From the NCBI GenBank assembly GCA_905182755.1, contig CAJJCS010000001.1:76945-140944 (forward strand): a DNA stretch of 64,000 nucleotides, given 5' to 3'. The notes under the pieces were generated by a model that was not told the origin of the DNA, ran no database searches, and saw only the letters and a list, made by a program, of their open reading frames with translations. Shown in pieces: positions 3,815 to 26,010 of this stretch (position 1 is the stretch's first letter; the number at the start of each line of letters is the position of its first letter). Position numbers and translations under genes: made by a program. Source of the DNA: Aequorivita sp. HC6-5. Its GTDB lineage: Bacteria; Bacteroidota; Bacteroidia; Flavobacteriales; Flavobacteriaceae.

Positions 3815-4825
3815 TTATTGTTTAATAAACTTTATTGTTTGGGTTCCCTTAACAGTAGCTACCTGCAAAAAGTAAATACCTTTTATCAGCGATGATGTAG
3901 AAATAGTAATCGCTCCTTGATTTAAAGCTTCTATTTTTGGCTGGAGTATTATTTTTCCTTGCACGTCACTAATGCTAAGATTTTTGATGAGTACTCCCGG
4001 TTCATATTTTAGGGTGAACTGTTCAGCTACAGGGTTAGGGTAAAGCTGTAGTTTGTCTTGTAAAGCAAGGTCATTGGCTCCTAGAAATTGATTGTATAAT
4101 ATTTGCAAAGAATCTATAGGTTCTTCACCAAATGGCATTTCTTCTATGTTTAAACGTAAAAAAGGGTTGTCTATATCATCATCTGCTTTATACACCAATA
4201 AATATGCAGAGGTAGAGGAGGTGCCTCTTGCCAAACAACGAGAATCTGCTCCTGCAAAATTAGCGCCTTGCATGGCTGCCATTAACTTATCTGCGAGTGT
4301 TCCGCTGGCAGTGTTAAAGTTGGTTTGCATATTATTTAATACTGTCTGGTTTAATAAAATGTTTCCTTGTACACTATAGGTGGGCCCTTGGATGTCTTCT
4401 TTGTAATCATCGGTAGAGTCTCCCGTGAAACCTGCAGTTCTTGCCTCACCCGAGGTGTTAAAATCTGCAATACCATATTGTCTAAAAGCGGGATTAAAAT
4501 TTTGAGAGTTACAAGAATCATTATCTAATAAATAGGCTATAATCTCATCTGGGCTTGCTCCATTTTCCATTTGGGTAATGGCATTATTTAAGTTGGAGTT
4601 TGGTATACAAACATAGGCTTGGCTATTTACACCACCACGGCCAGGTATAATCTTGGTGATAATGTCTATAATGCCTCCAAAATTTGCAGCGCCATCAACG
4701 CAGGATGCTCCTGCAGATCCAATATCACCTGTGGCAGGATCAACGGCTATAATAGAAAAAGTGTCTTGAGCCTGAGCTGTTACACATAGCAATGCAGCTA
4801 TAAGTAGGGTATATAAATTTTTCAT
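3815..4825 (-). CDS. DUF1028 family protein with T9SS type A sorting domain
   Basis: It is read from ATG 4825 as a separate 336-aa protein. It begins with a Sec signal peptide (MKNLYTLLIAALLCVTAQAQ) followed at once by the DUF1028 opening DTFSIIAVDPATGDIGSAG and the CVDGA and GRGGV motifs. The last ~75 residues are a type IX sorting domain (LYPNPVAEQF, later GKIILQP, ending KFIKQ), so the product is probably exported to the cell surface or outside. DUF1028 proteins are Ntn-hydrolase-like; activity is unknown. In this sequence its frame is joined to the upstream fumarylacetoacetase, probably through one inserted base. Confidence 0.85.
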   Translation of the reverse strand: MKNLYTLLIAALLCVTAQAQDTFSIIAVDPATGDIGSAGASCVDGAANFGGIIDIITKIIPGRGGVNSQAYVCIPNSNLNNAITQMENGASPDEIIAYLLDNDSCNSQNFNPAFRQYGIADFNTSGEARTAGFTGDSTDDYKEDIQGPTYSVQGNILLNQTVLNNMQTNFNTASGTLADKLMAAMQGANFAGADSRCLARGTSSTSAYLLVYKADDDIDNPFLRLNIEEMPFGEEPIDSLQILYNQFLGANDLALQDKLQLYPNPVAEQFTLKYEPGVLIKNLSISDVQGKIILQPKIEALNQGAITISTSSLIKGIYFLQVATVKGTQTIKFIKQ

Positions 4826-4839
4826 ATGTATATATATTT

Positions 4840-6118
4840 TTATTCTAGAGGCAGGTAAAACCTCACCGTCACAAGTTCCAAAACCAATTCTAAGACCATC
4901 TTTTTGGCAATAGGCTGTCATTTTAACGGTATCTCCGTCATTAATAAATTTACGTTGGCTACCATCATTGAGTGTAAGTGGGTTTTGACCCTTCCAGGTT
5001 AGCTCCAGCATAGATCCATAACTGTCTTTGGTAGGTCCAGAGATGGTTCCGCTACCCATCATATCACCACTACGAAGGTTACAGCCGTTTACAGTGTGAT
5101 GCGTTAATTGCTGCGCCATAGACCAGTACATGTACTTAAAGTTTGATTTACAGACAAGCGTTGGAGATCCATCTTTTGGCGCTATGGACGCTTCAAGATT
5201 GATGTCAAAATTCATAGGTCCGCTTTGATGCAAATAGGGTAGTGGCATCGGTTCTTGTTTAGGACCATGGGTTCTAAATGGTTCTAATGCGTCAAGAGTT
5301 ACAATCCATGGAGAAATCGTAGAGGCAAAACTTTTACCTAAAAAAGGTCCAAGAGGTACATACTCCCATGCTTGAATATCTCTGGCACTCCAGTCATTAA
5401 ATTGTACCAAACCAAAGATGTAATCTTCTGCTTCTTTAATTGGCACTCTTTTGCCTAAATCATTTGCATCTGTGGTTATAAATGCCATTTCTAGTTCAAA
5501 GTCTAGTAATTTACTTGGCCCAAATCCTGGAACACCGTCTTCTCCAGGTCTGGTTTGCCCATAAGGTCTTCTTACAGGTGTGCCAGAAGGAATTATAGAT
5601 GAACTTCTACCGTGGTATCCAATAGGAATATGAAGCCAATTTGGTAGTAATGCATTCTCTGGGTCTCTAAACAAACTTCCAACATTGGTTGCGTGTTCTT
5701 TACTTGCGTAAAAATCTGTATAATCTCCAACATCTACAGGTAGCTGCATTTCAATTTGATCAAGTGCAAATAATATTTTGTCACAATGGGCTCTATTTGT
5801 TTGTAATTCTTGGTTGCTTTTCAAGAAAATATCACTGATACGATTTCTTACTAGTCGCCATGTTTTGCGTCCATCTGCAATAAAATCATTTAAACTATCT
5901 TGAAGGAAAATATCTTCTGTAAGGTCAATTCCTTTAAAGTATCCAAGTTGGTGTAAAGCACCTAAATCTATGGCGGTGTCACCAATACGGGTACCAATTG
6001 TGATGATGTCATCACGTGTTAAAAACACACCAAATGGGATGTTTTGAATAGGAAAATCACTGTTTTGTGGAACATCAATCCATGAAACTCTTGAGGGGTC
6101 GTTTGCAGTTAAAGGCAT
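4840..6118 (-). CDS. fahA: Fumarylacetoacetase (3' end apparently frameshifted into the next gene)
   Basis: It hydrolyses 4-fumarylacetoacetate to fumarate and acetoacetate, the last step of tyrosine and phenylalanine breakdown. An N-terminal SH3-like domain is followed by the FAH barrel; DYTDFYASKEHATN gives metal ligand Asp135 and catalytic base His142, and later come SARDIQAWEY and GSGTISG. The protein consensus ends at GEVLPA. Removing one base near 4846-4853 gives LPALE followed by TAA at 4840-4842, a normal 425-aa enzyme. As written, the frame runs on into DUF1028 for 767 aa. I regard that fusion as artefactual. Confidence 0.9.
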
Positions 6119-20112: not shown

Positions 20113-20634
20113 ATGAATTTAGATATACCAAATAAAAACCACATGTCTTCACAAGATACATCTGCACCCTCTATGTATGATATAGCGATTGATACCATAG
20201 ATGGTAAGGCTATTGATTTTTCTTCTTTTAAAGGAAAAAAGATACTCTTTGTGAATGTTGCTTCTAAGTGCGGCTTTACCAAACAGTATAAGGATTTACA
20301 GAAGTTAAGTGATACCTATAAAGATACCCTGGTTGTTGTTGGAGTGCCTTGTAATCAATTCGGGAAACAAGAACCTGGTGATGCTGCTGAGATACAAAGT
20401 TTTTGTCAAGTTAATTATGGGGTGACATTTCTAGTCACAGAAAAAGTTGATGTAAAAGGGGCAAATCAACACCCTTTATACACCTTCCTTACCTGTGAGA
20501 CCTTAAACGGAAAAAGAGATTCTACCGTAAAATGGAATTTTCAGAAGTACATTGTTAGTGACAAAGGAACACTGATAGACCACTATTATTCTATAACAAG
20601 CCCACTAAGTAAAAAAATAACCAAGCACTTGTAA
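20113..20634 (+). CDS. Glutathione peroxidase family thiol peroxidase
   Basis: A 173-aa thioredoxin-fold peroxidase. The peroxidatic Cys53 is in NVASKCGFT, with the catalytic Gln in CNQFGKQEPG and Trp/Asn in VKWNFQKYIV, the classic Gpx triad/tetrad. It has Cys, not selenocysteine, and bacterial members are usually thioredoxin-dependent. There is no export signal. The start could be 20113 or the in-frame ATG 20143. It lies 36 bp after queD and converges on the photolyase operon with only 4 bp between stops. Confidence 0.9.
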   Translation: MNLDIPNKNHMSSQDTSAPSMYDIAIDTIDGKAIDFSSFKGKKILFVNVASKCGFTKQYKDLQKLSDTYKDTLVVVGVPCNQFGKQEPGDAAEIQSFCQVNYGVTFLVTEKVDVKGANQHPLYTFLTCETLNGKRDSTVKWNFQKYIVSDKGTLIDHYYSITSPLSKKITKHL

Positions 20635-20638
20635 TATA

Positions 20639-22123
20639 TTACCCTAAAGCATCCAGATATAGCATCGCATTTTCTTGATGGGTTTGTTGTTTTTCTTGGG
20701 GCATTTTATCATACATGCGCACGAGCATCCCAAGGCGTGGGTTTGACAAGAAAAACGCTCTGTGTGTATTCATAAACCTCCAAAATAGGCCATCCCAGGT
20801 GGCTTGCCAATCACCTTTTTTATAGTTACTCATTTTTATGATGTAGTTACTGCCACTAATATAGGGTTTGGTAGCCATTAGTCCTCCATCTGCGTATTGA
20901 CTCATACCATACACATTGGTAACCATTACCCAGTCATAGGAGTCTATAAATAGTTCCATAAACCAGCGGTATACTTCATCTGGATCAAACTCACATAACA
21001 TCATGAAGTTTCCTAAAATCATTAGCCGTTCTATGTGGTTGCAATATCCAGTCTCTAGTATTTTTTTAATTGTTTGATCAATGGGAGCAATGCCCGTTGT
21101 GCCGTCATAGAAAGATGCGGGTATTTTCTTTTTAAAATTCCAATAATTGGTGGTGCGCTCTTGGCTACCTCTAGATTCATAAATACCTCGTATAAATTCT
21201 CTCCACCCAATAATTTGACGCACAAAGCCCTCTGTAGAGTTTATAGGTACGTTATTTTTTTCAGCAAAATCCAAACAGGCATCAATAATTTCTGTGGGAG
21301 TAATTAAACCCACATTAAGCATTGGGGTCAATACGCTATGATTTAAAATAGAGTTTTCTGCAACTATTGCATCTTCATATACCCCAAATTCCATAAAACG
21401 TTGCTCGAAAAATTGCTGTAACCATGATTTTGTAGCTTCAAAACTAGTTGGGTATAAGGCATATGGAGTAAGACTTCCTAAATGGTTAGAGAAATGAGTG
21501 TTTACATACTGTGTTGCCTCTATAGTGTAAGAGTCAAGATCTGGAAATGAAATGGCTGGCGGCACTTTTTTTGCTGGATATTTCTTTCTGTTTTCTGTAT
21601 CATAGGTCCATTTGCCTCCCATTGGCTTAGCCTCTGGATCCATTAGTATGTTTCGCTTTTTTCGTTGCTCTTTGTAAAAAGTTGTTTGGTGGTATTTCTT
21701 TTTATGTTTTCCAAAAAAGGGAAGCAAGTCTTCTTTTGTGTTTAAAAACAGTGGGTTTTCCATTGTTTTAAAAGAGATACCTAAAGCTTTACAACCTTCT
21801 TGTATTCTTTTGTTAAGCCAGTTATCTGTAGGGTCTATATAATTTATGTGGCTAATGCCTTGTTTTTTTAACGCTGGTAGTAGCTCCCTTATATCTGAAA
21901 TTTTTTGGATAGATTCTACGTAGGTAACCTCCCTGTTTTTCTCTTTTGTGAGAAAATCTGCATAGCGCTTCATGGTTGCTCTATGGAAGGCTATTTTTTG
22001 TTTATGGAAAGGATATTGTTTAAAAAACAAATATTCTTCAACTAGGTACATAGGCGCATCTGTATCAAAAAGAGGTGACTCCTTAAATAGTTGGTGCGGA
22101 AATATGAGATGGATCTGTTTCAT
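20639..22123 (-). CDS. Bacterial (6-4)-photolyase/cryptochrome (PhrB-like, DPRP family) lacking Fe-S cysteines
   Basis: A 494-aa member of the deoxyribodipyrimidine photolyase-related family (FeS-BCP/PhrB group), which repairs (6-4) UV photoproducts or senses light with FAD. The family signatures are FPHQLF at the start, [40 protein letters not shown] and [10 protein letters not shown]. In PhrB the segment after this last motif holds three of the four cluster cysteines. Here that segment ([18 protein letters not shown]) has none, and the whole protein has only four Cys, none C-terminal of [11 protein letters not shown] [4Fe-4S] cluster is therefore unlikely. Its ATG overlaps the stop of the DUF2256 gene. 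Last gene of the operon. Confidence 0.88.
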
Positions 22124-22248
22124 TTGTTTGAGCTGCAGCGTTTACTGCAATATTTTACGTGTTCCCAGTTTTTCTCCCATTTTTTACGCCAAGAAAAGGG
22201 AAGCTTGCACACTGTGCATATTTTTTGAGGGAGATGTTGTTTTTTCAT
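22120..22248 (-). CDS. DUF2256 zinc-ribbon microprotein
   Basis: A 42-aa gene starting at ATG 22248 and ending in TGA 22120-22122. The protein starts [20 protein letters not shown] and ends with [11 protein letters not shown] plus a short polar tail. Two Cys pairs (CTVC, CSKRC) make a zinc ribbon. DUF2256 is a known family of about 40-60 aa that is strongly linked to cryptochrome/photolyase genes. The stop overlaps the photolyase start in the ATGA arrangement, which indicates translational coupling and supports a real gene. Function unknown. Confidence 0.9.
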
Positions 22249-22250
22249 TC

Positions 22251-22877
22251 TTAAAACTTAGGTAATTCTTCTACTCTGGCGTATGGGAATTGTGCTATTT
22301 TTTTTAAAGCATAATAACTGTTCAGCCCAGAGATGCCAACGCTATTGCTAGCCTGCAAGTCTATATCATCATCAACCATTGCACTATCATCGATAATTAG
22401 TTTTTGTATTTCACCTATGACCATCAACGTGCCATTGTGTTTGATTTCTAATGCTTCAATAAACTGCATCCCCATTTTAAAAGTGCTTTGTTTTACAAAA
22501 GGGGCCAAGATGTCTTTGTGGTACTCTTGGGTGAGCCCGCAGTGTTCAAATTCTGACTCTTCTTGGCTAAATTTAGCCGAGGTATAGTGCGCATTTTCTA
22601 CAAAACTAGGATGTATATGATTTATGGTATAAGACCCATTTTCTTGAATGTTTCTTAGCGTGTGTCCTACCTCAGGGGTTTGAGGCCTTGAAATAAACCC
22701 TAGTAAAGCTGGATTGCTACCCAGATGTACCACTGAGCTGAAGATGGCTAGATTTGATATTTTAGAATCACTAATGCTCCCTATAAGGTTTGCAGGTTTT
22801 ATACCAGTAACAGCATTAATTATTTTTAGCCTACTAATGCGGTCTAGGTGCTCAATATCTTTTTTAGTGTAAATCAT
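22251..22877 (-). CDS. Flavin reductase family protein
   Basis: A 208-aa FMN-binding split-barrel protein of the flavin reductase family: PANLIGSIS near residue 30, [24 protein letters not shown] (the FMN phosphate/isoalloxazine region), and SYTINHIH. It would supply reduced flavin or act on an unknown substrate. In this operon it lies between the class I-like photolyase and DUF2256, so a role in keeping photolyase flavin reduced is an attractive inference but unproven. It overlaps the upstream photolyase by 14 bp. Confidence 0.82.
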
Positions 22878-24336
22878 TGTGTTTTTTATTTACATGTGTT
22901 TGCAATATTTTCTTTTTCTCTTTTTGTACCGCAGGGTGCTTTTTATGTCCCCATATTTTATCTCTAGCCAAGGCAGCGCTTTGTTGCAAATCTACAATAG
23001 GAAAAGGATACTGCTCACCAATATACACATTACAAAAGGTTTGCTCCATAGAAGACATTTTCCAAGGTTCATGTATAAAGGCAAGAGGTACATTGGCTAG
23101 CTCTGGAACCCATTTTTTTATAAAGACGCCCTCTGGATCATGCTCTTGAGAGTTTTTAACAGGATTATACAGCCGAACGGTATTAATACCTGTGGTGCCC
23201 GCTTGCATCTGGAATTGTGGATAATGAATACCTGGCTCATAATCTAAAAACTGTCTTGCCAGGTGGTAGGTGCCCTCTCTCCAATCTTGATCTAGGTTCA
23301 TGGTTAAGAAAGAAACTACCATGGCGCGCATTCTAAAATTTATCCACCCAGTTTGTTCTACCGCTCGCATACATGCATCTATTAAAGGGATTCCAGTATT
23401 TCCTGTTTTCCAGGCTTTAATGAAAGCTTCATTTTTTGTATGCTCTAAAAGCTCATACCCACTATTTATACAATGGGTTTCATAGCTGCAGTCTACTTCA
23501 AATTTTTGTATGAAATGGCAATGCCAATGCAACCTGGTAAGCATGGCAGAAAATGCTTTGCTGTTTTTTGTGCCAGATGGGTGAGTGCCTATGTATTGAA
23601 ATGCCTGTTTTACACTCATGTTTCCCCAAGCCAAATAAGGAGATAGCCTACTGCAGCTTAGCCTACTTTGAGCTGGTTTTGAAATGTGCTTTTGGTAATT
23701 AAATCCTCTTTTTTCTGCAAATGATTTTATATAACGCCATGCATTACCCTCTCCAGCTGGTTGGTAGTATTTTGAGTAGTCTTTGAGTTTTAGCTCCAAT
23801 TTTTCAGGAAGTAGGAAAGGATGCGATAACGGTTTGTGACTTGTTATAGAGAAATTATTTTGCAGCACCGGTGTGTGCATTTTTGCTTGCCATTGTTTGC
23901 TCCAATCAATTCTGTTTTTAATACCTCTTAAAATGCCATCGCGTTGAAATTCTTCCCAACAAATATCATTTGTTTTTGCAAAAGAGGCTACCTTTTTATC
24001 ACGCTGCCAGGTTGTTTTTGTGCCACTTTCTCTGTAGCTATATATGTGTTGGATATCAAAACTGCTACTTAGGTGTTCAAAAATAGCTTCTGCAGATCCG
24101 TAGAAAACATCTACAGATCTATTAAAAGGGGCTAGGGTTTTATTTATGGCCTCAATAGAGTGGTATATAAACTGCAGGTGGCGATCACTGGTATCTGGGT
24201 AGGTAATTATACTAGGCTCAAAAAAATAAACAATACGGTAGTCTATATTGGCATTTTCTGCACGAGAAAGCCCTTGGTGATCTTGAGTGCGAAGATCACG
24301 CTTAAGCCAGACAATATTGATTGGCTTTGTGCTCAA
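22864..24336 (-). CDS. Deoxyribodipyrimidine photolyase / cryptochrome family protein
   Basis: A 490-aa photolyase with both domains. The N-terminal antenna domain opens [15 protein letters not shown]. The C-terminal FAD domain has [51 protein letters not shown] and a full FAD pocket ending near [19 protein letters not shown]. It is likely a light-driven cyclobutane-dimer repair enzyme or a cryptochrome; the exact class cannot be settled by eye. Start and stop overlap the neighbouring genes (ATGA at 24333-24336 upstream; 14 bp downstream). Confidence 0.88.
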
Positions 24337-25451
24337 TAGGTAATTTGTTTTTTACATTTTTTCCAATACCCAAAAAATGAAGGGAAGTAACCCTTGACAT
24401 CAAACATCCAATCTCTAGGGTCTTGCGTTCCTTTGTAATGCTTGTTTAAAGGATGTTCTTTAAAAAATAAGTTTGTTAGGCCATACTGCTGTTGCAAACT
24501 AGAAAATTCACCTACATAAATTTGAATGTTTGGTATGTTTTGATGTGCAAGGTCTAAAATAAAATCAAGAGTTTTTTGTGACACAGGATATTTGTCAAAA
24601 CAAGAGGGCTCTAACAGTAAAATTCTGTTTGCAGAGATATCCTCTTTCCAGAGGGGATCAAGATTATACATCGTATAAATACAACTTGGCAGGTTCTGCG
24701 CTATTTTAATTGGGCCTTTATTTGGCAGGGGTGTTTTTAATACAAAAGGGCTTGTCTGTTTTAAAACCTCTGGAACAGCCATATCACTAAAAGCCTCATA
24801 GGGTATATCTAGAAAAGTGTCTTTTTGATTGGTAAAACAATAGGTATTAATGTTTTCTTGATTGGCTACATACTTTTTATTGGCATTGGCTCCCGCTACC
24901 CATTGCCAGCTTAGTGCATTGCTTGCCCAATCTGCATCTAGTAGGTGGTAATACATCCATTTTGCAGGAGTTTTCCAATGGCTGCGGCCCATATTGCATG
25001 AAATGGCAGCTATATACATCCTGAGGTGGTTGTGCAGGTATCCCGTTTTGTAAAACTCTTGTATGGCACTATCTATAGCATTTATACCTGTGGTAGCTTC
25101 CAAGATTGCTTTTGGCACTTCTGTATTTGATACAGGTGTTTGTGTGTGCTTTATGTCTTGGTTTATGTCCTCCCCTTTGGCAATCCATACTTGTTGCCAG
25201 TAGTCTCGCCAGGCTAGTTCTTGAATAAATTTTTCTGCCTGCTGGGGATGGTGCCCTTTTTTTAAAATTTCGTCAAAAATAAATTTTGTAGAAATAACAC
25301 CTCTAGAGATGTAGGGAGACAAATAGGATACAGCGCCATTTATATAGTTTCTAGAGGCTCTGTATTTTAAAGGATCTATGGCGTCAATGCGTTTGAGAAT
25401 CTCTTTATATGATGTTGGAAAGGTGAGCGTTTTATCTTCAGGTAATTTCAT
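24333..25451 (-). CDS. Photolyase-like protein with the FAD-binding domain at the N-terminus and no antenna domain
   Basis: A 372-aa protein. Residues ~20-215 match the photolyase FAD-binding domain: [56 protein letters not shown] and [28 protein letters not shown]. The usual N-terminal alpha/beta antenna domain is missing. Instead a ~150-residue C-terminal region follows with Rossmann-like strands ([20 protein letters not shown]) and the end [13 protein letters not shown]. This rearranged layout occurs in some Bacteroidota genomes next to photolyases; its function is undescribed to my knowledge. Stop and start overlap the next gene. Confidence 0.85.
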
Positions 25452-25742
25452 TTAACGCTTGCTTATCTTATTGCCAGAGATGGCTTTTTGTCTAGAGCAT
25501 TTAAAGCGTGTGATGTCTTGGTTTCTTTTTTTAAGATGTTTTTGACTCACACCACTATTTACACGTTTTCTCCAACGCTTAAAACTTGATTCCTTAAGGT
25601 TTCCACGCATTACTTTAATGACCTCCTTTTCTGGAAGCCCAAATTGAAATAGTATGGCCTCAAAGGGTGTGCGGTCTTCCCATGCCATTTCTATGATACG
25701 GTCAAGTTCTCTTTCAGTAAAAGTATCGCTGGCTGTAGCCAT
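25452..25742 (-). CDS. TIGR03643 / DUF2805 family protein
   Basis: A 96-aa basic protein that opens FTERELDRIIEMAWEDRTPFEAI, continues FQFGLPEKEVIKVMR and then SSFKRWRKRVNSGVSQKH, the signature of TIGR03643 (DUF2805). The LPEKEVIKVMR helix pair looks like a small helix-turn-helix, but DNA binding has not been shown. The family is commonly found with cryptochrome/photolyase genes. The stop abuts the start of the next gene with no gap, and the upstream gene ends 2 bp before it. Confidence 0.88.
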   Translation of the reverse strand: MATASDTFTERELDRIIEMAWEDRTPFEAILFQFGLPEKEVIKVMRGNLKESSFKRWRKRVNSGVSQKHLKKRNQDITRFKCSRQKAISGNKISKR

Positions 25743-25744
25743 AT

Positions 25745-25921
25745 TTATGAAGGTGTTTTTGCTAACGATTCTAGTTTTTTCATTACCTGTTCAGCCTCAT
25801 AGGCTTTTTGATCACTAGCTTTTCTATTTGTTTTGGAAAGATCAAAAGATTCTTTAGTGAGTTTTTGATAGGCTTCCTCTAGGGTCTGTTTTTCTGATTT
25901 CTTTTTAAAAAGTCCAAACAT
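25745..25921 (-). CDS. Lacal_2735 family small protein
   Basis: A 58-aa gene with ATG at 25921 and TAA at 25745-25747. The protein opens MFGLFKKKSEKQTLEEAYQK and continues as a charged helix ending VMKKLESLAKTPS. This matches the Lacal_2735 family of Bacteroidota small proteins: a short FGLFKKK basic head and a single long helix. The head may bind membrane or nucleic acid; function unknown. It is the first gene of the photolyase operon, 2 bp before TIGR03643, and its 5' region carries the operon promoter. Confidence 0.85.
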   Translation of the reverse strand: MFGLFKKKSEKQTLEEAYQKLTKESFDLSKTNRKASDQKAYEAEQVMKKLESLAKTPS

Positions 25922-25984: not shown

Positions 25985-26010
25985 TGGTTTAATGTTAAAG
26001 TTAAACAAAA
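25985..26010 (-). promoter_or_regulatory. GTTTAAC-type repeats upstream of the photolyase operon
   Basis: On the minus strand this stretch reads TTTTGTTTAACTTTAACATT followed by AAACCA, giving TGTTTAAC (26000-26007) and a nearby ATTAAAC in the opposite sense. It sits 65-90 bases before the operon's first start codon. TGTTTAAC recurs in the amine oxidase/queD intergenic region. An operator or alternative-sigma element is possible; no exact TAnnTTTG box is seen here. Confidence 0.3.

What the first reader, a model, noticed from the sequence alone, without database searches (positions are those of the whole stretch)
20639..25921. Seven-gene light/DNA-repair operon with three photolyase-superfamily proteins
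Seven minus-strand genes with overlaps or gaps of at most 2 bp encode Lacal_2735, TIGR03643, a rearranged FAD-domain photolyase-like protein, a two-domain photolyase, a flavin reductase, DUF2256 and a PhrB-like photolyase. Three flavoproteins with a flavin reductase and three unexplained small proteins suggest one light-responsive complex or pathway, not separate repair enzymes. DUF2256 and TIGR03643 are repeatedly linked to such genes but have no known role.
Basis: partly seen in the sequence, partly recalled or inferred. Interest (0 to 1): 0.75.

Follow-up and report, generated by a model that had tools for sequence, protein, structure and literature searches.

The report
Light-powered DNA repair operon with helpers
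A marine bacterium keeps three different light-driven DNA-repair-type proteins in one operon with a flavin reductase and three small uncharacterised proteins that travel with such enzymes in many bacteria, which makes the small proteins testable as missing helpers of light-driven DNA repair.

Summary
In detail: seven minus-strand genes at 20639-25921, gaps at most 2 bp, overlaps up to 14 bp. The seven-gene order recurs in two other Flavobacteriaceae records. Across 247 Bacteroidota genomes DUF2256, DUF2805/TIGR03643 and the PhrB-like (DPRP) gene co-occur far beyond chance, also among photolyase-bearing genomes and by genus. 53 of 76 DUF2256 genes lie within 1 kb of a photolyase-superfamily gene, all on the same strand. 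The three flavoproteins differ: (1) a short photolyase (SPL) with the catalytic residues kept and an alpha/beta domain moved to the C-terminus; (2) a (6-4)-type protein without its four Fe-S cysteines; (3) a separate clade, called PHR1 here, whose class I active site is replaced by invariant other residues and whose Trp triad is broken. PHR1 has the flavin reductase behind it in Vibrio plasmids too, and is fused to uracil-DNA glycosylase in a Deinococcus. I read this as a photoreactivation operon with accessory factors. A shared pathway is supported; one fixed complex is not, since combinations change and SPL and PHR1 are not associated. The enzymes are variants of known kinds; the accessory link and PHR1 are the new part.

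The parts
25993..26008 (-). TTGTTTAACTTTAACA, conserved footprint upstream of the operon, possible promoter/operator
   Evidence: Also 75 and 80 bp upstream of the first gene in L159 and L162. One site with up to 1 mismatch in the own genome, but the reversed control pattern gave 2, so only the conservation speaks for it. Not enriched upstream in more distant relatives.
25745..25921 (-). DUF6435 / Lacal_2735 family small protein, 58 aa
   Evidence: PF20027 29.5 bits, NF033487 73.9 bits; family in 23 of 247 Bacteroidota genomes
25452..25742 (-). DUF2805 / TIGR03643 protein, 96 aa, five predicted helices, weak HTH resemblance of relatives
   Evidence: PF10985 117.6 bits, TIGR03643 112.1 bits; model; weak HTH-type Pfam matches in some relatives, none in the window protein itself
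24333..25451 (-). Short photolyase-like protein (SPL), 372 aa, FAD domain N-terminal, alpha/beta region C-terminal
   Evidence: PF03441 78.3 bits; alignment A2; model pLDDT 87.8; catalytic residues kept
22864..24336 (-). PHR1-clade photolyase-superfamily protein, 490 aa, replaced active site, TTG start
   Evidence: PF00875 + PF03441; separate clade; invariant R/F/H/M replacements
22251..22877 (-). Flavin reductase domain protein, 208 aa
   Evidence: PF01613 48.6 bits; operon-type family in 43 of 247 genomes at E 1e-25 or better
22120..22248 (-). DUF2256 protein, 42 aa, four invariant Cys (C11, C14, C34, C38) and invariant W20, W24, W28
   Evidence: PF10013 75.3 bits; alignment A5 of 34 sequences
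20639..22123 (-). DPRP/PhrB-like (6-4)-type photolyase, 494 aa, without the four Fe-S cysteines
   Evidence: PF04244 191.2 bits; closest solved relatives are PhrB/CryB-type; cysteine columns

Best explanation
This is a photoreactivation operon: lesion repair is divided between unlike photolyase-superfamily flavoproteins, which share a small set of accessory proteins. SPL keeps the class I CPD catalytic residues and probably reverses CPDs (inferred). The DPRP protein is a (6-4)-photolyase type that lost its Fe-S cluster ligands (loss shown, activity inferred). PHR1 is a separate clade with a replaced active site and a broken Trp triad (shown). I propose that it cannot photoreduce its FAD in the usual way and is kept reduced by the adjacent flavin reductase, and that it acts on DNA, perhaps on a related or deaminated lesion (inferred from the reductase pairing and the UDG fusion in Deinococcus). 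DUF2256 (four invariant Cys, probably a Zn-finger, basic and Trp-rich) and DUF2805 (helical, perhaps HTH-like) are proposed to be nucleic-acid-binding helpers used by several superfamily members, not by one fixed complex (inferred). DUF6435 is a third linked small protein whose action I cannot name.
For: Conserved order: full seven genes in L159 and L162; DUF2805+SPL+reductase+DUF2256+DPRP in 9 of 80 named loci; SPL is the nearest of the tested families within 250 bp downstream of DUF2805 in 31 of 80. Co-occurrence over 247 genomes: all 17 SPL genomes have DUF2256 and DPRP; of 36 PHR1 genomes 35 have DUF2256 and 36 DPRP; 37 of 43 reductase genomes have DUF2805. DUF2256 within 1 kb of a superfamily gene in 53 of 76 ORFs, same strand 53 of 53. 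PHR1 x reductase 22/14/21/190, p 7e-11; the reductase lies downstream of PHR1 in 5 of 5 Vibrio plasmid loci read, of 8 Vibrio records (L250, L251, L254, L260, L264). Active-site columns. PHR1-UDG fusion in Deinococcus gobiensis.
Against: No expression, binding or activity data. 22 of 76 DUF2256 ORFs have no superfamily gene in the fetched stretch of up to 15 kb, and 7 of 9 plasmid DUF2256/DUF2805 loci read had none within 5-6 kb. Only 23 of 62 DUF2805 ORFs lie within 3 kb of one. 21 of 43 reductase genomes lack PHR1, and 14 of 36 PHR1 genomes lack this reductase. SPL too has no residue aligned to the distal triad Trp (gap in 20 of 20), so a shortened triad is not special to PHR1. Co-occurrence may in part reflect sunlit habitats. 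The DUF2805 model has no significant PDB match.
Confidence: 0.5

Rival explanations
1. Ordinary photolyase island under shared control: the small proteins are regulators (DUF2805 an HTH autoregulator, DUF2256 a small Zn-finger co-regulator) and take no part in repair itself.
For: Some DUF2805 relatives give weak HTH-type matches (NirdL-like_HTH in 20 of 51 members, best E 0.0016; Sigma70_r4 in 3 of 51). DUF2805 is divergent from its nearest superfamily gene in 3 of 20 cases within 1 kb (L047, L085, L097). DUF2256 stands upstream of its partner only in 27 of 53 cases and on both sides in 14, a place that a regulator could also have. A footprint lies upstream of the operon.
Against: DUF2256 lies downstream of PHR1 in 12 of 12 and of SPL in 7 of 9 close pairs. 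DUF2805 is on the same strand in 17 of 20. The footprint is seen only in the three closest loci. 22 of 76 DUF2256 ORFs have no such gene nearby to regulate locally.
Confidence: 0.25
2. Light-sensing (cryptochrome-like) signalling module: PHR1 is a photoreceptor that signals through DUF2805/DUF2256; repair is done by SPL, DPRP and the fourth photolyase of the genome.
For: PHR1 lost class I catalytic residues in 36 of 36 sequences. The genome has a separate class I photolyase with the usual residues at G000:C1:164987-165442. A phr1-like Vibrio cholerae protein is called a cryptochrome in a passage seen of PMC9426592; its identity with this clade was not tested.
Against: A PHR1-clade protein is fused to uracil-DNA glycosylase in Deinococcus, which points to work on DNA. 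Two of three Trp-triad positions are lost, a chain that photoreceptor cryptochromes commonly use (recalled).
Confidence: 0.15
3. Shared ecology only: genomes of sunlit habitats accumulate UV-protection genes, and the small proteins hitch-hike without a functional link.
For: DUF2805, DUF2256 and DPRP are each enriched among genomes with PF03441. No unrelated UV-protection gene was run as a control.
Against: Association remains among the 150 PF03441 genomes (DUF2256 x DPRP 72/4/8/66) and at genus level (43/2/8/69 of 122). Tight same-strand adjacency, 51 of 76 within 300 bp, is not explained by ecology.
Confidence: 0.1

Closest known systems
Short photolyase-like (SPL) proteins, and reversed-domain photolyases Phr4/Phr5, Phr6, Phr7 of picocyanobacteria (PMC9426592 section and passages seen; PMC9649867 passages seen; Xu et al. 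2021 recalled, not held)
   Same: FAD domain first, no N-terminal alpha/beta domain, a short alpha/beta region at the C-terminus; CPD catalytic residues kept
   Different: No Fe-S cysteine set as described for Phr4/Phr6; sits in an operon with DUF2805, DUF2256, a flavin reductase and DPRP; orthology to Phr7 was not tested
Prokaryotic (6-4) photolyases (PhrB, CryB, FeS-BCP) and their Fe-S-less subgroup M with PromaPL (PMC9178010, two sections and passages seen)
   Same: DPRP plus FAD domains, best PDB matches are PhrB/CryB-type, the second His of the HH pair is kept
   Different: All four Fe-S cysteines absent, as described for subgroup M; membership in subgroup M by tree was not tested
Class I CPD photolyase (E. 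coli Phr) and CRY-DASH
   Same: PHR1 has the same two Pfam domains in the same order
   Different: PHR1 forms a separate clade and has R, F, H and M in place of the class I Glu, Asn, Asn and Trp active-site residues
Two-photolyase UV-B operon of Synechococcus sp. PCC 7335 (PMC9649867, passages seen)
   Same: More than one photolyase-family gene in one transcript
   Different: Two genes only, not this gene set; UV-B induction was measured there, not here

Membership tests
SPL / reversed-domain photolyase (372-aa protein) | No N-terminal antenna domain, FAD domain at the N-terminus | tested here: met
   Pfam finds only PF03441, at aa 75-195; model; Foldseek matches photolyases, best E 2.9e-6, query TM 0.40
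SPL / reversed-domain photolyase (372-aa protein) | C-terminal alpha/beta domain related to the antenna domain | tested here: inconclusive
   Alternating strands and helices in the model. hhalign, local mode: to the PHR1 antenna domain prob 35%, E 4e-4; class I antenna 10%, E 3e-3; DPRP N-domain E 0.11; PHR1 FAD domain (control) E 0.18. Global mode gave only 1.6% and 0.7% for the first two
SPL / reversed-domain photolyase (372-aa protein) | Class I CPD catalytic and FAD residues | tested here: met
   11 of 12 columns checked are as in E. coli Phr in 20 of 20 SPL sequences sampled; the distal triad Trp column is a gap in all 20
SPL / reversed-domain photolyase (372-aa protein) | Fe-S cysteine set described for Phr4/Phr6 | tested here: not met
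   No Cys-x2-Cys in the window protein, none conserved in alignment A2 (by eye)
Prokaryotic (6-4) photolyase | DPRP domain plus FAD domain | tested here: met
   PF04244 191.2 bits and PF03441 28.4 bits, cut-off 27; PDB matches
Prokaryotic (6-4) photolyase, FeS-BCP subtype | Four Fe-S cluster cysteines | tested here: not met
   0 of 4 in the window protein; of 54 DPRP proteins aligned 15 have all four and 39 none
Class I CPD photolyase (PHR1) | Active-site Glu, Asn, Asn, Trp and Trp triad | tested here: not met
   R, F, H, M in 36 of 36; proximal triad Trp is F/L/I in 36 of 36; distal triad Trp in 0 of 20 sampled
CRY-DASH (PHR1) | TIGR02765 curated cut-off and DASH clade | tested here: not met
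   139 bits against cut-off 317.05; separate clade from Vibrio DASH (quick tree with long branches)
Photolyase (all three flavoproteins) | Light-dependent lesion repair | not testable with these tools
   Needs protein work

The most novel reading that the evidence does not exclude
DUF2256 and DUF2805 are general accessory factors of light-driven DNA repair in bacteria, and the PHR1 clade is a new functional class of the superfamily: a flavoprotein that a dedicated flavin reductase keeps reduced and that acts on a UV lesion no known photolyase class handles, for example deaminated (uracil-bearing) dimers, as its fusion to uracil-DNA glycosylase in Deinococcus suggests.
Probability: 0.25. Interest if true: 0.8.

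Novelty: new variant of a known kind. Interest (0 to 1): 0.58.

Why it matters
Photolyases are usually pictured as working alone with their bound cofactors (general knowledge). If two widespread unknown families (DUF2256, DUF2805) and a flavin reductase are their partners, that changes the picture of photorepair and gives unknown families a testable role. The PHR1 clade keeps a different active site in the Bacteroidota, Proteobacteria and Deinococcus sequences examined and may have an undescribed substrate or function.

Tried and rejected
Anti-phage defence: PADLOC gives only one weak match, JetB3 for DUF2805 (E 0.0024, 15.4 bits); rejected. Phage origin: no DUF2805 or DUF2256 match at E 1e-3 in 50,697 phage records with the window proteins as queries. 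A regulon: the upstream motif has one site with up to 1 mismatch in the own genome while the reversed control pattern has 2; in the window with up to 2 mismatches 2 sites against 1.03 expected; 18 of 137 upstream regions of relatives with up to 2 mismatches against about 10% in shuffles; rejected as a regulon signal. Flanking genes as part of the module: of 197 loci scanned, FAD oxidoreductase in 3, pterin synthase in 6, glutathione peroxidase in 9, the window included each time; rejected as conserved members. DUF2805 fold by Foldseek: nothing significant, best E 2.0.

Rows dropped before counts: low-scoring DUF2805 matches (below 98 bits; 18 genomes, 11 of them without the high-scoring type), so 62 of the 73 genomes were used; in the 11 genomes that have both this low-scoring type and DUF2256 it is never within 20 kb of DUF2256. 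Two partial DUF2256 matches, G082 (over the family's cut-off) and G011 (below it), so 77 of the 79 genomes were used. The reductase search was cut at E 1e-25 and the PHR1 search at E 1e-40. Homology of PHR1 to Vibrio cholerae Cry2 or picocyanobacterial Phr1 is recalled or guessed and was not tested.
Full report
1. Observation. Seven minus-strand ORFs fill 20639-25921. Junctions are +2, 0, -4, -14, +2 and -4 bp, and the fourth gene starts with TTG. Pfam and NCBIfam name them DUF6435/Lacal_2735, DUF2805/TIGR03643, an FAD_binding_7-only protein, a DNA_photolyase + FAD_binding_7 protein, Flavin_Reduct, DUF2256, and DPRP + FAD_binding_7. The window lies in a 1.89 Mb assembly, 77.5% complete, which has a fourth superfamily gene outside the window at G000:C1:164987-165442.

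2. Conservation of the order. Their titles are Bacteroidota groups except three titled only 'bacterium' and two MAGs titled Comamonas and Polynucleobacter. With profiles built here, the seven-gene order appears in L159 (uncultured Flavobacteriaceae; DUF2805 96%, PHR1 82% identical) and L162 (Gillisia hiemivivida; PHR1 74%; 409 bp between the first two genes). DUF2805, SPL, reductase, DUF2256 and DPRP are together in 9 of 80, with PHR1 too in 5 of 80. The nearest of the tested families within 250 bp downstream of DUF2805 is SPL in 31 of 80, the reductase in 6, DUF2256 in 2, PHR1 in 2. Many of these loci end at contig ends, so absences are lower bounds.

3. Co-occurrence. The same 247 Bacteroidota genomes were searched with eight queries. 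Genomes with each: DUF2805 (at least 98 bits) 62, DUF2256 77, DPRP 83, SPL 17, PHR1 36, operon-type reductase 43 (E 1e-25 or better), any PF03441 150, Lacal_2735 23. SPL and PHR1 are separated from other photolyases by gaps in score (SPL 392.6 bits or more, next 113.3; PHR1 379.4 or more, next 255.9). Both/first only/second only/neither: DUF2805 x DUF2256 56/6/21/164; DUF2805 x DPRP 57/5/26/159; DUF2256 x DPRP 73/4/10/160. Among the 150 PF03441 genomes: 56/6/20/68, 57/5/23/65, 72/4/8/66. By genus, of 122: 34/4/11/73, 34/4/17/67, 43/2/8/69. All 17 SPL genomes have DUF2256 and DPRP, 14 of 17 DUF2805; of 36 PHR1 genomes 35 have DUF2256, 36 DPRP, 28 DUF2805; PHR1 x reductase 22/14/21/190. SPL x PHR1 is 5/12/31/199, p 0.08, and p 0.39 among PF03441 genomes. 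Fisher p-values treat genomes as independent, which they are not; the genus count is the only correction made, and no unrelated UV-protection gene was run as a control.

4. Adjacency. In the fetched stretches, 53 of 76 DUF2256 ORFs lie within 1 kb of a photolyase-superfamily gene, 51 within 300 bp, 53 of 53 on the same strand; the nearest one is of the class I/DASH type in 29, DPRP in 10, PHR1 in 7, SPL in 7; 22 have none in the stretch. The side depends on the partner: DUF2256 lies upstream of class I/DASH-type genes in 24 of 30 close pairs and of DPRP in 15 of 16, but downstream of PHR1 in 12 of 12 and of SPL in 7 of 9. DUF2805 lies within 3 kb of a superfamily gene in 23 of 62; within 1 kb it is on the same strand in 17 and divergent in 3. 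Lacal_2735 lies within 2 kb of DUF2805, DUF2256, a photolyase-superfamily gene or the reductase in 13 of 23 genomes (with coordinates typed).

5. Other phyla (plasmids). DUF2256 is in 132 and DUF2805 in 43 plasmid records. I read 9 of these loci. Acinetobacter schindleri has DPRP, DUF2256 and, converging on them, TIGR03643 in a row; Vibrio parahaemolyticus has DUF2256 near DPRP and DASH; the other 7 had no photolyase within 5-6 kb. PHR1 relatives are in 49 records at E 1e-40. I read 16 of 49: 10 have another operon family near (L249, L253, L263 DUF2256; L250, L251, L254, L260, L264 reductase, the first three of these also with TIGR03643 1.4-4 kb away on the other strand; L252 SPL, itself Bacteroidota; L259 DPRP and DUF2256), one is fused to UDG (L256), 5 have none (L255, L257, L258, L261, L262). 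Several are near-duplicates (Salinivibrio, Vibrio), so these are not independent.

6. The 372-aa protein (SPL). The model is good (pLDDT 87.8, pTM 0.88) and Foldseek finds photolyases (1qnf, E 2.9e-6, query TM 0.40). Its C-terminal 128 residues match the antenna domain of PHR1 weakly (hhalign local prob 35%, E 4e-4, one comparison) and that of class I less (10%, 3e-3); the DPRP N-domain gave E 0.11 and the PHR1 FAD domain, as control, 0.18; in global mode the first two fell to 1.6% and 0.7%. A reversed order would fit Phr4/Phr5, Phr6 and Phr7 of PMC9426592 (section 5 and passages seen). Residues equivalent to E. coli E274, W277, R278, N341, M345, W359, D372, D374, N378, W382, W384 are kept in 20 of 20 SPL sequences sampled; the column of W306 is a gap in all 20. 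The E. coli numbers are the literature's (recalled), one less than the positions printed; the labels printed were shifted by one.

7. The DPRP protein. Best PDB matches are of the PhrB/CryB kind. The four Fe-S cysteine columns hold no Cys here; of 54 aligned, 15 have all four and 39 none. DPRPs in loci with SPL are Fe-S-less in 24 of 25, in loci without SPL in 15 of 29. PMC9178010 (introduction and section 13 read, other passages seen) describes an Fe-S-less subgroup M with PromaPL.

8. PHR1. In a tree of 89 proteins it forms its own clade (36 rows, support 100) apart from class I (with E. coli Phr and the fourth own photolyase, support 92) and CRY-DASH (with a Vibrio DASH) (quick method, midpoint root, long branches flagged by the program). 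In 36 of 36 sequences the residues at E274, H340, N341, N378, W384 are R, N, F, H, M; the proximal triad Trp is F (20), L (14) or I (2); W359 is kept in all. The distal Trp is absent in 20 of 20 sampled. All 16 plasmid relatives read keep R, W and F; 14 of 16 have His and Met; Nostoc has D and M, Halobaculum N and Y, and these two keep the proximal Trp. In Deinococcus gobiensis the protein is one 770-aa ORF with PF00875, PF03441 and PF03167 (UDG); the other 6 Deinococcus records have uracil-DNA glycosylase annotated under the match but were not read.

9. Small proteins. DUF2256 has four invariant Cys and invariant W20, W24, W28 in 34 of 34 aligned: a likely Zn-finger, by pattern. DUF2805 is predicted as five helices (pLDDT 74.5, C-terminal tail unsure) with no PDB match; some relatives, not the window protein itself, give weak HTH-type Pfam matches.

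10. Literature. Searches in the held library: 'DUF2256' with 'photolyase' 0 papers, 'TIGR03643' 0, 'DUF2805' with 'photolyase' 0, 'DUF2256' alone 2 (listing seen only: a small-ORF database and a plant zinc finger). Further searches brought the papers cited here; passages of PMC9498864 and PMC9040609 were seen and add nothing on these families. So I found no printed link in that library, which lacks most subscription journals. The SPL paper itself (Xu et al. 2021) is not held and is known here through citing papers and recall.

11. Verdict. A real, recurrent photorepair operon. The enzymes are variants of known kinds; the accessory families and the PHR1 clade with its reductase are the open and testable part.

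Noticed in passing
L256:4959-7271 (Deinococcus gobiensis plasmid P2): One 770-aa ORF joins a PHR1-clade photolyase-like protein to a uracil-DNA glycosylase; the record's table shows only a UDG gene there. Six more Deinococcus plasmid records show UDG annotated under the same match.
   Followed up: partly
54 DPRP proteins from L043-L238 and the window: DPRP proteins fall into two sharp types, all four Fe-S cysteines or none, and the type without them goes with SPL loci (24 of 25 against 15 of 29).
   Followed up: partly
18 genomes, 14 of them in genus g2: A second, lower-scoring DUF2805 subfamily (69-90 bits), not near DUF2256; 7 of the 18 genomes lack DUF2256 altogether.
   Followed up: no
window 25993-26008: TTGTTTAACTTTAACA upstream of the operon, conserved in two relatives; too few sites for a count above chance.
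   Followed up: partly
window 3815-6118: A 767-aa ORF carrying fumarylacetoacetase domains, DUF1028 and a Por secretion tail in one frame, a combination that looked odd to me.
   Followed up: no
L209, L230: Loci titled Comamonas and Polynucleobacter (both MAGs) resemble the Bacteroidota ones; possibly mis-binned contigs.
   Followed up: no
window 20113-20634: A glutathione peroxidase gene converges on the operon end with a 4-bp gap; a similar gene is found in 8 further of 197 loci scanned, its position there was not checked.
   Followed up: partly
DUF2256 genes in L043-L158: DUF2256 stands upstream of class I/DASH-type and DPRP genes but downstream of PHR1 and SPL.
   Followed up: partly
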